Shown here piece after piece: positions 22,452 to 34,424 of a stretch of DNA of 43,398 bases. The position numbers and the translations under genes were made by a program. Source of the stretch: Clostridiales bacterium. GTDB lineage: Bacteria; Bacillota; Clostridia; Saccharofermentanales; Saccharofermentanaceae. How positions within the stretch are numbered: position 1 is the stretch's first letter; each line of letters begins with the position of its first letter. Location of the stretch: assembly GCA_017509205.1 (NCBI GenBank), contig JAFWQF010000014.1, forward strand, positions 1-43,398, read 5' to 3'. The notes under the pieces were generated by a model that was given only the letters and a program-made list of their open reading frames with translations, was not told the origin of the DNA and searched no databases.

Positions 22452-23138
22452 TCAAAGCGCCTTTGGGTATTCGTTACATAAAAGCCTGTAGGGCGGCTCG
22501 TCCTCGTCTATCGCGGGGAACCTTCCTACGGGCGGATTGAACCTGTTGTCGGTGTTGTCGTCATTGCACTGTGAGACCTCACCGATGAGTATCGCACCCG
22601 TGCCCTTTTCGACTTCGAAATCGTGATAGAGTCCCTGCTGGATCGAGATGCTCTCGCCGGGCGTCAGGCGCACCTGTGTTCCCGCGGGAACGGTATATGT
22701 GCGGCCGTCGCTGTGAATGGTGACGTCGCTGACTTTGTCTATCGATTCATCGGGAAGAGAATTGTAAACGCGGATAAGCAGATTTCCTCCGCCGCGGTTG
22801 ATGATGTCCTCCATCTTGAACCAGTGAAAATGATTGGGCGAGTACTGCCCCTCCTCAATGAAAAGGAGCTTTTCGGCATAGGGCTTTTTGTACTTGTCCT
22901 GCATCTTCTGATTGCCGTTACGCAGAGTGATCAGCGAAAAGCCTACCTTTTTGAAATCACCGAGGCCGTAATCGGTGATGTCCCAGCCGAGCATGTTGTC
23001 CCTGATCTCATCGTACTCGTGGCCCTTTGTCTTCCATTCCTCCGGCGTGAAACTGCAGAACGGCGGAAGGCTTACCTTAAGGTCTTTCAGGAACGATTCC
23101 ATGCGCTTAAGCGCAGCGTTGATCTCAGATCTTTTCAT
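22452..23138 (-). CDS. D-lyxose isomerase-type cupin (Lyx_isomer family), last gene of the nitrogenase-like operon
   Basis: A 228-residue cupin closely resembling D-lyxose ketol-isomerases, which interconvert D-lyxose and D-xylulose with a divalent metal. Seen are the N-terminal MKRSEINAAL and LPPF motifs, the metal-binding stretch EEGQYSPNHFHWFKMEDI (about 91-110), and a later cupin block with HDFE near 172. It overlaps hydF by 14 bp, so it is translationally coupled to the metallocofactor operon. No pentose transporter or kinase is nearby, which makes a purely sugar-catabolic role odd. It may be a passenger gene, or a metal-binding cupin recruited to the pathway. GGAG stands before the ATG. 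Confidence 0.85.
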   Translation of the reverse strand: MKRSEINAALKRMESFLKDLKVSLPPFCSFTPEEWKTKGHEYDEIRDNMLGWDITDYGLGDFKKVGFSLITLRNGNQKMQDKYKKPYAEKLLFIEEGQYSPNHFHWFKMEDIINRGGGNLLIRVYNSLPDESIDKVSDVTIHSDGRTYTVPAGTQVRLTPGESISIQQGLYHDFEVEKGTGAILIGEVSQCNDDNTDNRFNPPVGRFPAIDEDEPPYRLLCNEYPKAL

Positions 23139-24336
23139 ACAGTGTCTCCTTAATGTCAGGCAGCACCTCGAGCGAACGGGGCAGGATACCCTTCATGAAC
23201 GCGATCGCCGTGCCGTAATTGGTCATGGGGATCCCTGCGTCTTCAGCGCACTTGGTGCGGTATCTCATCTCGCGGTCATTTAACATGCATGCGCCGCAGT
23301 GGATTATCATCTTATATTTCGACAGGTCATCCGCAAAAGAAAGACCTGACGTTGTCTCGATGTTTATCTTCTTTCCGGTGTATTCGCCGAGCCACTTGGG
23401 GAGCTTATACGTGCCGATGTCTTCGCACTGGCGGTGGTGCGTGCAGCCTTCTGAAATGAGAACGGTGTCACCGTCTTCGATCGTATCGATCGCCTTTACG
23501 CCTTTGACCGCGCTCCTTAAGAATCCCTTGTGTCTTGCCATCAGGATCGAAAATGAGGTCAGCATAATGTCCTTCGGAACAATGGGAGCGACCTTGCCGA
23601 AAGCCTGGCTGTCGGTTACGACGAGCTTGGGTTTTTCCTTAAGATCAGCGATCGCCGATGCAAGCTCAGTGTCCTGTGTGATGTACGCTTTTGCGTTCCT
23701 GTCGAGGACTTCTCTTAAGACCTGCTGCTGGGGCAGGATTATCCTTCCCTTCGGAGCGGATGAATCGATGGGAATAACGAGTATTACCGTGTCTCCGGGT
23801 TCGATCAGATCAGAGATCAAAGGCTCGCCTTCCTGCTTGGAAGAACCAAGCTTTCCGATCAGTTCGCGAAGCTCGTTAACGTTCTTTCCGGTTGCGGCGC
23901 TGACGCAGATCTCGTTTTCCTTGAGGCCCGTGATCTCCTCTTTCAGATCAGCTTTGTTGTATGCAACGACAAAAGGTATTCCTTTCTCACCGAAAAGCTT
24001 TATCAGCTGCTTTTCCGTCTCGCCGATGCCTTCTTCAAGGTCTACTACGAGTACCGCTACGTCGACTTTGTTGAGTATCAGTCTCGTTTTAGAGATACGC
24101 TTTTCGCCAAGTTCTCCCTCATCGTCAAAACCCGGTGTGTCGATGATTACAACAGGGCCCAAAGGAAGCAGCTCCATTGCTTTGGTAACAGGGTCAGTCG
24201 TTGTTCCTTTTGTATCGGAAACAACTGCAAGATCCTGGTTGGTAACCTTGTTAACGAGGCTGGATTTGCCGGCATTTCTCCTGCCGAAAAAACCGATGTG
24301 GATCCTCTCTCCCGAGGGTGTGTCGTTAAGGCTCAT
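23125..24336 (-). CDS. hydF: HydF: [FeFe]-hydrogenase maturation GTPase and scaffold
   Basis: HydF is the scaffold on which the 2Fe subcluster of the [FeFe]-hydrogenase H-cluster is held before transfer to HydA. The 403 residues show an N-terminal GTPase (P-loop GRRNAGKS at 18-25, DTPGFDDEGE near 66, YNKADL for guanine near 130), a dimerisation domain, and the C-terminal [4Fe-4S] site. The ligand pattern CxH...HCxxC is intact: C298, H300, H346, C347 and C350. All key residues are present, so it should be functional. HydE and HydG, its usual radical-SAM partners, are not in the window. It overlaps the upstream NifK-like gene by 11 bp and the isomerase by 14 bp. Confidence 0.95.
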   Translation of the reverse strand: MSLNDTPSGERIHIGFFGRRNAGKSSLVNKVTNQDLAVVSDTKGTTTDPVTKAMELLPLGPVVIIDTPGFDDEGELGEKRISKTRLILNKVDVAVLVVDLEEGIGETEKQLIKLFGEKGIPFVVAYNKADLKEEITGLKENEICVSAATGKNVNELRELIGKLGSSKQEGEPLISDLIEPGDTVILVIPIDSSAPKGRIILPQQQVLREVLDRNAKAYITQDTELASAIADLKEKPKLVVTDSQAFGKVAPIVPKDIMLTSFSILMARHKGFLRSAVKGVKAIDTIEDGDTVLISEGCTHHRQCEDIGTYKLPKWLGEYTGKKINIETTSGLSFADDLSKYKMIIHCGACMLNDREMRYRTKCAEDAGIPMTNYGTAIAFMKGILPRSLEVLPDIKETLYEKI

Positions 24337-33672: not shown

Positions 33673-34424
33673 CACTTATCCTCACCGATCAGCTTCTTTG
33701 CAAGCTCAAGGAAGCGCTGTGACGCCTCGCATTCGGGCCTGCTCTCTACTGCCGTATGTCCCATGTCCTCGCACTCATTGATGTCGTCAGATCTCGGGAT
33801 CTCCGCGATGACATCGATGCCGTGCTCCTTGGCAAACGAATACACTTTTTCGGTCTCGCCGGGAACGTTCCTGTGATTCAGGATCACTCCTCCGACGTGA
33901 GCATAGCCTCTGTCCTCAAAGTTCCTGACTGCCTGGCAGATGTTGTTTGCTGCATAAAGAGCCATCTTCTCGCCTGATGTGACGATAAGGACCTGCTCTG
34001 CATAGCCTTCCCTGATGGGAGCCGCAAAGCCTCCGCAGACAACGTCGCCCAAGACGTCGTAGAGCACAACGTCGGGCTTTCTCTTTTCGAAAAGCTCAAG
34101 TTCGTCAAGAAGATTGAATGTCGCGATGATGCCTCTGCCTGCGCAGCCGAGGCCAGGTGTGGGGCCGCCGGTCTCGATGCAGAGGATACCTCCGAAGCCT
34201 TCAGCCGAGATCTCTTCAGCGGAAGAAGGCTCGCCGCCCTCCCTTAAGATCTCGATTACCGGCTTTAAGGGCTTGCCGCCTAAAAGATTGATCGTTGAAT
34301 CGGCCTTGGGATCGCAGCCGATCTGGATCACGCTCTTTCCGAGCCTTGCGAAGGCTGCGGCGAGGTTTGATGTGACGGTGGATTTTCCGATTCCGCCTTT
34401 GCCGTAAACTGCGATCTTAAGCAT
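33672..34424 (-). CDS. NifH-like ATP-dependent reductase (Fe protein family)
   Basis: A 250-residue Fe-protein homologue that should couple ATP hydrolysis to one-electron transfer. It shows the P-loop GKGGIGKST (8-16), switch regions QIGCDPKADST and DVLGDVVCGGFA, and both cysteines that bridge a [4Fe-4S] cluster between two subunits, C94 in GLGCAGRGI and C130 in VVCGGFA. Arg97 matches the regulatory Arg100 of NifH. It is shorter than NifH (about 290), like reductases of nitrogenase-like systems (BchL/CfbC type). It is the first gene of a 12-gene operon. Its ribosome binding site GGAG lies inside the 3' arm of a leader hairpin. Confidence 0.93.
   Translation of the reverse strand: MLKIAVYGKGGIGKSTVTSNLAAAFARLGKSVIQIGCDPKADSTINLLGGKPLKPVIEILREGGEPSSAEEISAEGFGGILCIETGGPTPGLGCAGRGIIATFNLLDELELFEKRKPDVVLYDVLGDVVCGGFAAPIREGYAEQVLIVTSGEKMALYAANNICQAVRNFEDRGYAHVGGVILNHRNVPGETEKVYSFAKEHGIDVIAEIPRSDDINECEDMGHTAVESRPECEASQRFLELAKKLIGEDK

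What the first reader, a model, noticed from the sequence alone, without database searches (positions are those of the whole stretch)
22452..34424. Hybrid operon: nitrogenase-like H/D/K/D/K with HypCDEF, HydF and a TM1266-type regulator
Twelve minus-strand genes, nearly all abutting or overlapping (TGATG, ATGA, or 11-17 bp overlaps), run from a NifH-like reductase to a D-lyxose isomerase-type cupin. Established: HypCDEF make the Fe(CN)2CO unit of [NiFe]-hydrogenases, HydF carries the 2Fe precursor of the [FeFe] H-cluster, and nitrogenase-like proteins do ATP-driven low-potential reductions or cofactor assembly. Seen: all three toolkits sit in one transcription unit with no hydrogenase subunit. 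Inference: a single pathway builds or transforms an iron-CO/CN cofactor, perhaps a HydE/HydG-independent source of H-cluster precursor, or a new nitrogenase-like enzyme with CO/CN ligands. I recall no described system with this composition.
Basis: partly seen in the sequence, partly recalled or inferred. Interest (0 to 1): 0.95.

Follow-up and report, generated by a model that had tools for sequence, protein, structure and literature searches.

The report
HydG-free hydrogenase cofactor assembly operon
A block of overlapping bacterial genes that mixes nitrogenase-like enzymes with parts of two hydrogenase-building kits likely makes the iron–carbon monoxide–cyanide piece of hydrogen-handling enzymes without the usual enzyme HydG, which nearly all of the genomes checked that carry these genes lack.

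Summary
Confirmed: twelve minus-strand genes, nearly all abutting or overlapping, run NifH-D1-K1-HypF-C-D-E-TM1266-D2-K2-HydF-isomerase. Best reading: a HydG bypass in [FeFe]-hydrogenase maturation. The D2 family and HydG exclude each other: of 58 genomes in the window's family 21 carry D2, 27 HydG, none both; all 21 keep HydE, 20 keep HydF; none of the 58 has a [NiFe] large subunit. Of 391 genomes of the class 16 carry D2, none of them HydG, all HydE. Of 50 D2 genomes reached through titled records (some overlap) 49 lack HydG, Clostridium carboxidivorans P7 included. Sister genomes share 97-100% identical HydA whichever route they carry, and one genome shows hydG deleted between hydE and hydF, only its first bases left. 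HydF or HydE often sits in the operon. In 14 of 97 loci the Hyp/NifHDK-1 half is replaced by a FecCD-type importer whose ATPase is often fused to the TM1266 hydrogenase-regulator domain; no locus has both, which suggests salvage of a precursor. A 2022 paper left missing hydG and HypAB-less HypCDEF in C. ljungdahlii unexplained; that species carries D2. HydG replacement is strongly supported by comparison; each chemical step is inferred.

The parts
33672..34424 (-). NifH-like Fe protein (module 1 reductase; the only NifH in this operon, so it probably serves both D/K pairs)
   Evidence: TIGR01287 314.5 bits, PF00142 299 bits; Cys94 and Cys130 invariant in 54 full-length sequences
32362..33675 (-). 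D1: nitrogenase component-1-like subunit, module 1 (likely ATG start at 33672)
   Evidence: PF00148 98.4 bits; closest solved relatives by sequence are NifE; nitrogenase fold in predicted model
31436..32452 (-). K1: short nitrogenase component-1-like subunit, module 1 (likely true start about 32365)
   Evidence: PF00148 29.1 bits against 28.6; Cys66 and Cys71 conserved in 98% of 50
29159..31435 (-). HypF carbamoyltransferase (makes the cyanide ligand precursor)
   Evidence: TIGR00143 738.6 bits; acylphosphatase, zinc-finger, YrdC and Kae1-like domains all present
28944..29156 (-). HypC chaperone
   Evidence: TIGR00074 over cut-off; Cys2 invariant in 64
27901..28947 (-). HypD, Fe(CN)2CO assembly scaffold
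   Evidence: TIGR00075 372 bits; Cys53, Cys56 and C-terminal cysteines 299, 301, 314, 321, 330, 338 invariant in 69, Cys25 in 99%
26900..27904 (-). HypE, forms the thiocyanate on its C-terminal Cys
   Evidence: TIGR02124 425.5 bits; terminal Cys334 invariant in 73
26639..26887 (-). TM1266-family iron-only hydrogenase system regulator (putative)
   Evidence: TIGR03959 110.5 bits, PF21699
25363..26655 (-). D2: divergent nitrogenase component-1-like subunit, module 2; the marker that excludes HydG
   Evidence: AF2 model mean pLDDT 83.9, Foldseek matches to nitrogenase and NifEN chains, best E 6.9e-17; Cys52, Cys56, Cys117 and C-terminal Cys426 invariant in 45
24326..25381 (-). K2: short nitrogenase component-1-like subunit, module 2 (likely start 25366)
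   Evidence: PF00148 79.5 bits; Cys42 conserved in 98% of 62
23125..24336 (-). HydF, H-cluster maturation GTPase and [2Fe] scaffold
   Evidence: TIGR03918 549.9 bits; Cys298, Cys304, Cys347 and Cys350 invariant in 39
22452..23138 (-). D-lyxose/D-mannose isomerase-type cupin; overlaps HydF but is probably a hitchhiker
   Evidence: NF051472 268.6 bits, below the 350 cut-off; not kept beside HydF in distant relatives

Best explanation
[quoted passage not shown] Shown by calls: D2 and HydG exclude each other almost completely, HydE, HydF and HydA are kept, and hydF or hydE often sits in the operon. Inferred: HypF and HypE make cyanide from carbamoyl phosphate; HypC/HypD, helped by NifH-D1-K1 (which would supply low-potential electrons, for example to make CO), build an Fe(CN)x(CO)y unit; NifH-D2-K2 would then convert it, with ATP-driven electrons, into the mononuclear Fe(II)(CN)(CO)2 synthon (or a close relative) that unchanged HydE dimerises and HydF passes to HydA. 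In a second version of the locus the HypCDEF/NifHDK-1 half is missing and an ABC importer takes its place, which would mean that the iron–ligand unit, or a precursor of it, is taken up from outside. TM1266 is presumably a regulator of this system as of the usual one.
For: (1) Exclusion: 58 family genomes, D2 (>500 bits) in 21, HydG over cut-off in 27, both in 0 (Fisher p 2e-8). 391 class genomes, D2 (>390 bits) in 16 (16 of 16 without HydG, 16 of 16 with HydE), HydG in 240 (recount; Fisher p 1.5e-7; p-values ignore kinship). 50 D2 genomes reached through titled records: 49 without HydG over cut-off. (2) The rest of the pathway is kept: HydE 21 of 21, HydF over cut-off 20 of 21, a PF02906 HydA-domain match in 58 of 58. 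(3) Swaps recur: the HydE tree needs at least 7 label changes, 5 forced by supported branches; D2 and HydG genomes occur within the same genus in g1, g3, g147 and g203. (4) Deletion scar: in G045 the TM1266-hydE-hydF cluster matches sister G047's TM1266-hydE-hydG-hydF except that about 1.4 kb is gone, leaving only the start of hydG; hydE and hydF are also adjacent without hydG in G043 and G057. (5) Same enzyme: HydA is 97-100% identical among the eight g1 genomes compared, 5 with D2 and 3 with HydG, and in 46 HydE sequences no position separates the two groups, with 80 positions invariant. (6) Linkage: of 79 type-A loci 70 hold TM1266, 37 HydF, 20 HydE and 2 HydA. (7) Catalytic cysteines of HypC/D/E and HydF are intact and no [NiFe] large subunit exists in 58 of 58 genomes. 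(8) PMC9431212 (passages and section 17) found HydE and HydF but no motif-conforming HydG in C. ljungdahlii and C. carboxidivorans, and HypCDEF without HypAB in C. ljungdahlii; both species encode D2.
Against: Oliverpabstia intestinalis carries both HydG and D2 (L076, L156). Nine or ten class genomes have HydE but neither HydG nor D2, five of those listed at least 90% complete. The best-covered set is one genus (13 of the 21 family D2 genomes), so kinship inflates the p-values; completeness of the 50 titled genomes was not told. In two of the 21 family D2 genomes (G032, G044; 84% and 81% complete) the only PF02906 matches are weak (about 90-102 bits), as also in HydG genomes G017, G024, G028 and G036. 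D2 in the window scores below Pfam's cut-off for its family. There is no biochemistry: nothing shows that D1K1 or D2K2 touches an Fe-CO-CN species. HypCDEF is known to make Fe(CN)2CO, not Fe(CN)(CO)2, so a ligand exchange has to be postulated. PMC9431212 assigns a HydG to C. autoethanogenum by motif and proposes an atypical HydG-like radical SAM protein of about 450 aa in the other acetogens; in C. carboxidivorans I saw only a 198-bit, 392-aa match against a cut-off of 312. A paralogous NifHDK-FecCD-ABC-PBP operon exists in a HydG-positive genome (L157), so the importer pairing is not unique to hydrogenase genes. Type B loci form one clade or nearly so, so Hyp and importer need not have been exchanged repeatedly.
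Confidence: 0.82

Rival explanations
1. The nitrogenase-like and Hyp proteins only supply free CO and cyanide (D1K1/D2K2 as CO-forming reductases, Hyp as cyanide source), and HydE/HydF assemble the Fe unit from free ligands.
For: PMC9431212 section 17 cites in vitro work in which HydE+HydF without HydG gave about 1% activation, doubled by added CO or CN-. HydG is missing but HydE and HydF are kept.
Against: HypC, HypD and HypE keep all the assembly cysteines, which free cyanide release would not need; two separate D/K complexes are kept; free CO and CN- are toxic and inefficient. The importer version is hard to square with freely diffusing gases.
Confidence: 0.1
2. The operon makes a different cofactor, a nitrogenase-like active site with CO/CN ligands or an altered H-cluster, used by an unidentified enzyme; loss of HydG is a side effect.
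For: No hydrogenase gene in most copies of the operon (HydA in 2 of 79 type-A loci); D1 and D2 are far from characterised nitrogenase-like enzymes.
Against: The same HydA (97-100% identical) with the same L1-L4 motifs occurs with HydG in sister genomes, HydE shows no group-specific residue, and without the operon these D2 genomes would have no known source of the H-cluster's CO/CN.
Confidence: 0.05
3. HypCDEF serves a [NiFe]-hydrogenase elsewhere in the genome, and co-transcription with nitrogenase-like genes and HydF is incidental.
For: HypCDEF is best known from [NiFe]-hydrogenases; PMC9431212 lists HypA-F and two sets of HypCDE in C. carboxidivorans; PMC4022347 annotates one [NiFe] enzyme in C. 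autoethanogenum (passage).
Against: PF00374 in 0 of 58 family genomes (ringing in 5 of 14 control genomes), while HypD occurs in all 13 g1 D2 genomes and in only one other of the 58, G002; the order is conserved across Lachnospiraceae, Clostridium and a Coriobacteriaceae genome.
Confidence: 0.02

Closest known systems
HydEFG maturation of [FeFe]-hydrogenase (HydG radical SAM tyrosine lyase)
   Same: Ends in the same HydE, HydF, HydA; TM1266 regulator in the same place; likely delivers the same or a closely related Fe-CO-CN synthon
   Different: No HydG, so no tyrosine cleavage is expected; Hyp proteins and two nitrogenase-like complexes, or an importer plus one, stand in its place
HypCDEF pathway for the Fe(CN)2CO unit of [NiFe]-hydrogenases
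   Same: All four proteins with intact catalytic cysteines and domains
   Different: No [NiFe] large subunit in the family searched; co-transcribed with NifHDK-like genes and HydF; predicted target is the H-cluster
NifEN / NifH (FeMo-cofactor scaffold and its reductase)
   Same: D1's best sequence match among solved structures is NifE (1.7e-9); ATP-dependent reductase plus D/K pair used for cofactor assembly rather than catalysis
   Different: Short K subunits, no conserved cofactor-binding cysteine or histidine; not linked to nif genes in the loci seen; different predicted product
DPOR (BchLNB), CfbCD and methylthio-alkane reductase (MarBHDK)
   Same: Nitrogenase-like ATP-driven reductases; DPOR and methylthio-alkane reductase folds align; NifH here scores 309 bits on the CfbC model, below its 402 cut-off
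   Different: Sequence below family cut-offs; partner genes point to an Fe-CO-CN compound, not a tetrapyrrole or thioether
BtuCDF/FecCD-type metal-complex importers
   Same: PF01032 permease, ABC ATPase and PF01497 binding protein in type B loci
   Different: ATPase fused to the TM1266 hydrogenase-regulator domain in 6 of 8 type-B ATPases examined by Pfam; sits in place of HypCDEF

Membership tests
[FeFe]-hydrogenase maturation pathway | HydF over NCBIfam cut-off with cluster cysteines | tested here: met
   549.9 bits; 4 invariant Cys
[FeFe]-hydrogenase maturation pathway | HydE in the genome | tested here: met
   G000:C82, 564.8 bits
[FeFe]-hydrogenase maturation pathway | HydG in the genome | tested here: not met
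   best hit 77.3 bits against a cut-off of 312, at the HydE gene itself; the assembly is 93% complete
[FeFe]-hydrogenase maturation pathway | a HydA substrate with H-cluster motifs | tested here: met
   G000:C77, TSCSPGW, MPC, GGVMEA, GCPGGC
HypCDEF Fe(CN)2CO assembly | HypF domains, HypE C-terminal Cys, HypD Cys set, HypC Cys2 | tested here: met
HypCDEF Fe(CN)2CO assembly | [NiFe] large subunit as acceptor | tested here: not met
   PF00374 in 0 of 58 genomes
HypCDEF Fe(CN)2CO assembly | CO/CN infrared bands on HypCD | not testable with these tools
   needs protein
Nitrogenase (NifHDK) | Fe protein with P-loop and two cluster cysteines | tested here: met
   GKGGIGKST in the translation; Cys94 and Cys130 invariant in 54
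Nitrogenase (NifHDK) | cofactor-binding Cys/His in the D subunit | tested here: not met
   at 90% (Cys) and 95% (His) conservation, no Cys after 164 or His after 180 in D1; in D2 only the tail Cys426; a NifE cysteine of that region (its role recalled) aligns to a non-cysteine in D1
Nitrogenase-like component 1 (PF00148) | Pfam gathering score and fold | tested here: met
   D1, K1, K2 over cut-off, D2 below, but D1 and D2 models match nitrogenase chains
Nitrogenase-like component 1 (PF00148) | bridging Fe-S cluster and ATP-driven electron transfer | not testable with these tools
   needs protein

The most novel reading that the evidence does not exclude
An organometallic iron–CO–CN compound is a shared nutrient: some bacteria build it with HypCDEF plus a nitrogenase-like complex, others (type B loci) import it through a TM1266-fused FecCD-type transporter, and both finish it with a second nitrogenase-like complex to make the H-cluster without HydG.
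Probability: 0.4. Interest if true: 0.98.

Novelty: categorically new. Interest (0 to 1): 0.95.

Why it matters
The described route to the H-cluster's CO and cyanide is HydG (PMC12752695, abstract and passages). A second, chemically unrelated route would merge three fields (nitrogenase-like reductases, Hyp chemistry, [FeFe] maturation), give a role to a large uncharacterised nitrogenase-like family, and account for the missing hydG and the HypAB-less HypCDEF reported in syngas-fermenting Clostridium (PMC9431212). It is found in named gut bacteria (Blautia, Roseburia, Coprococcus, Eubacterium, Anaerobutyricum) and D2 is encoded by the laboratory acetogen C. ljungdahlii, so it can be tested. The importer version predicts that organometallic precursors are exchanged between microbes.

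Tried and rejected
A HydE-independent pathway was rejected: HydE is over cut-off in 21 of 21 family and 16 of 16 class D2 genomes. Service to a [NiFe]-hydrogenase was rejected for this family. The isomerase as a pathway member was rejected because it is not kept beside HydF outside close relatives. An RNA element: no Rfam family at gathering threshold over the whole window. The idea that HydE is specialised for a different substrate found no support: no group-specific position in 46 sequences. Repeated exchange of Hyp and importer halves was not supported: two changes on the D2 tree, one not ruled out. Term searches in the main text of C. autoethanogenum transposon, promoter and proteome papers (PMC9004356, PMC6873888, PMC9040625) gave nothing on these genes.

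Counts that need care: the D2+ set uses scores above 390 bits or 500 bits; weaker hits (D1 cross-hits and paralogues, which also occur in HydG genomes) were dropped: 6 of the 27 genomes with any match, and 11 of 27. HydE and HydG status in the class set was read from E-values in the tables because the row lists are cut; my recount gives 257 HydE genomes as the tool's tally does, and 239 HydG against the tally of 240, so HydE+/HydG- is 25 or 26, of which 16 have D2. The Fisher test on HydE+ genomes used 26. One search classed 97 of 101 loci (4 duplicates left out): 79 A, 14 B, 0 both, 4 neither (L076 and L078 begin at the contig edge just upstream of NifH2; L092 has a HypE piece below threshold; L152 has its Hyp module on another contig, L155). 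The residue counts use full-length copies among L028-L107 plus the window. Fisher p-values ignore kinship.

Literature: searches (listings with the start of each abstract) showed no paper that joins nitrogenase-like genes, Hyp and HydF in one system; only openly licensed PMC papers are searched, and no preprints. The eleven-term space of subscription journals was not searched.
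Full report
What is there. Between 22452 and 34424 on the minus strand lie NifH, D1, K1, HypF, HypC, HypD, HypE, TM1266, D2, K2, HydF and a D-lyxose/mannose isomerase-type cupin. From NifH to the cupin nearly every gene overlaps or abuts the next, so one transcription unit is likely. 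The window lies on contig 9 of a 2.38-Mb, 125-contig, 93% complete assembly. The same assembly carries one [FeFe]-hydrogenase HydA on contig 77, beside an ORF that looks NuoF/HydB-like by eye, and HydE on contig 82.

The order is conserved widely. A scan of genomes of 84,980 species with the D2 alignment found 414 loci, of which the best 80 were fetched. The arrangement NifH-D1-K1-HypF-C-D-E-TM1266-(NifH2)-D2-K2-(HydF)-(HydE) recurs, with gaps, in Saccharofermentans, Blautia, Roseburia, Coprococcus, Eubacterium, Anaerobutyricum, Clostridium carboxidivorans (without TM1266 in the stretch) and a Coriobacteriaceae genome. Across 97 loci, 79 have the Hyp/NifHDK-1 half (type A); among these 70 have TM1266, 37 HydF, 20 HydE and 2 HydA within the stretch held, many of which are cut by contig ends.

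The key result is the relation to HydG. In 58 genomes of the window's family, D2 (above 500 bits) occurs in 21, HydG over its curated cut-off in 27, and both in none. All 21 D2 genomes have HydE over cut-off and 20 have HydF; all 58 have a PF02906 match, though in G032 and G044 among the D2 genomes only weak copies of 90-102 bits; none has a [NiFe] large subunit. In 391 genomes of the class, D2 occurs in 16, none with HydG and all with HydE, while HydG occurs in 240 and HydE in 257 (recount). In 50 genomes reached through titled D2 loci, HydG is over cut-off in one, Oliverpabstia intestinalis, which has a canonical HydA-TM1266-HydE-HydG-HydF cluster as well (L156). Exceptions in the other direction exist: nine or ten class genomes have HydE without HydG or D2, five of those listed at least 90% complete.

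The exchange has happened more than once and recently. Both states occur within genera g1, g3, g147 and g203. The HydE tree of 46 sequences needs at least 7 changes of state, 5 of them forced by supported branches. In g1 the usual cluster is TM1266-HydE-HydG-HydF (L026, L163, L164). In G045, which has the operon, the cluster is TM1266-HydE-HydF, 90-98% identical in protein to G047's; the DNA alignment breaks 22 bases into hydG and resumes at the hydF start, so about 1.4 kb has been deleted and only the first bases of hydG remain. HydA from the eight g1 genomes compared (5 D2, 3 HydG) is 97-100% identical with identical L1-L4 motifs, and HydE has no residue that separates the two groups. So the same hydrogenase and the same HydE are supplied by HydG in one genome and, by inference, by the operon in its sister.

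Type B. In g3 (8 genomes), in G280, G425, G196, G417 and G125, and in L103, D2 loci lack the Hyp/NifHDK-1 half; the place next to NifH2-D2-K2 is taken by a FecCD permease, an ABC ATPase and a PF01497 binding protein. HypD is absent from the 8 g3 genomes altogether. Of 97 loci 14 are type B and none has both halves. In 6 of 8 type-B ATPases examined by Pfam the TM1266 domain is fused to the C-terminus (L022, L103, L147, L149, L150, L153; not L146, L151), and BLAST shows it in five more g3 loci; it is absent from the ATPase of the paralogous operon in HydG-positive G003 (L157). HydE or HydF sits inside several type-B operons (L103, L146, L147, L151). The simplest reading is that the importer delivers what the missing half would make; this is inference, and the D2 tree needs only one or two A/B changes.

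Proteins. HypC, HypD, HypE and HypF keep the cysteines and domains of active enzymes, including the C-terminal Cys of HypE. NifH keeps both cluster cysteines. D1 keeps Cys71, 72, 132, 135 and (98%) 164; D2 keeps Cys52, 56, 117 and a tail Cys426; K1 keeps Cys66 and 71; K2 keeps Cys42. This is compatible with a bridging Fe-S cluster, but no cofactor-binding Cys or His is conserved further on. Predicted models of D1 and D2 (mean pLDDT 78 and 84) match nitrogenase, NifEN and DPOR chains at 11-19% identity.

Mechanism. Established (PMC12752695, abstract and passages): HydG makes Fe(II)(CN)(CO)2-cysteinate from two tyrosine turnovers, HydE reduces and dimerises it, HydF and the glycine cleavage system add the amine bridge. 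Proposed here: HypF/HypE supply cyanide from carbamoyl phosphate; HypCD with NifH-D1-K1 builds an Fe-CN-CO unit, the nitrogenase-like pair most plausibly supplying the electrons that make CO; NifH-D2-K2 converts this unit (or the imported one) into HydE's substrate. Each of these steps is untested. HypCDEF is known to give Fe(CN)2CO (also PMC9431212), so a cyanide-to-CO change is required and is the natural task for D2K2, which is kept in both versions.

Print. PMC9431212 (passages and section 17) reports HydE and HydF without HydG in five of eight Clostridium acetogens, says its authors cannot give a straightforward explanation, offers an atypical HydG-like radical SAM protein or free ligands as scenarios, and reports HypCDEF without HypAB in C. 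ljungdahlii and others. C. ljungdahlii and C. carboxidivorans encode D2, and C. carboxidivorans has no HydG over cut-off here (best 198 bits against 312). I could not test C. autoethanogenum, to which that paper assigns a HydG by motif; its [FeFe]-hydrogenase has been purified according to the same paper. Nine searches showed no paper that joins the parts.

Verdict. HydG replacement is strongly supported by comparative evidence and untested at the bench; the division of labour between the two nitrogenase-like complexes and the nature of the imported compound are open.

Noticed in passing
G022, G031, G054, G055 (genus g1), also G005, G008, G010, G012; L188, L189: Genomes with HydA domains but no HydE, HydF or HydG over cut-off and no D2; HydA of G031 and G055 (99% complete) has full H-cluster motifs with TSCCPGW. 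How these mature is unexplained.
   Followed up: partly
L157 (G003) 3684 to about 10000, and similar 170-245-bit A1 hits in G014, G021, G023, G028, G030, G046: A paralogous NifH-D-K operon (28-32% identical to the g3 pair) with its own FecCD/ABC/binding-protein importer, in genomes with or without HydG (gene order read only in G003): perhaps another import-and-reduce system for a metal compound.
   Followed up: partly
L076, L156 (Oliverpabstia intestinalis): The only one of 50 D2 genomes that also has HydG, in a canonical HydA-TM1266-HydE-HydG-HydF cluster.
   Followed up: partly
G121, G213, G267, G333, G381: At least 90% complete class genomes with HydE but neither HydG nor D2: divergent HydG, assembly gaps or a third route.
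   Followed up: no
window:22452-23138: D-lyxose/mannose isomerase-type gene overlaps HydF by 14 bp in the window; it sits next to HydF only in the window's close relatives.
   Followed up: yes
D2, window:25363-25404 (C-terminus): An invariant cysteine in a low-confidence, often multi-Cys tail (GLGC) that might act as a swinging metal ligand, like the tail cysteine of HypE.
   Followed up: partly
L014 and L178-L187 HydA: The HydA of both D2 and HydG genomes has Ser in place of the second Cys of the TSCCP motif (TSCSPGW).
   Followed up: no
L028 and L041: Two D2 genes at different identity (89% and 63%) in one MAG (RUI507); could be mixed binning.
   Followed up: no
G015 (C4 and C5): Two HydE genes over cut-off, one inside the operon next to HydF and one elsewhere.
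   Followed up: no
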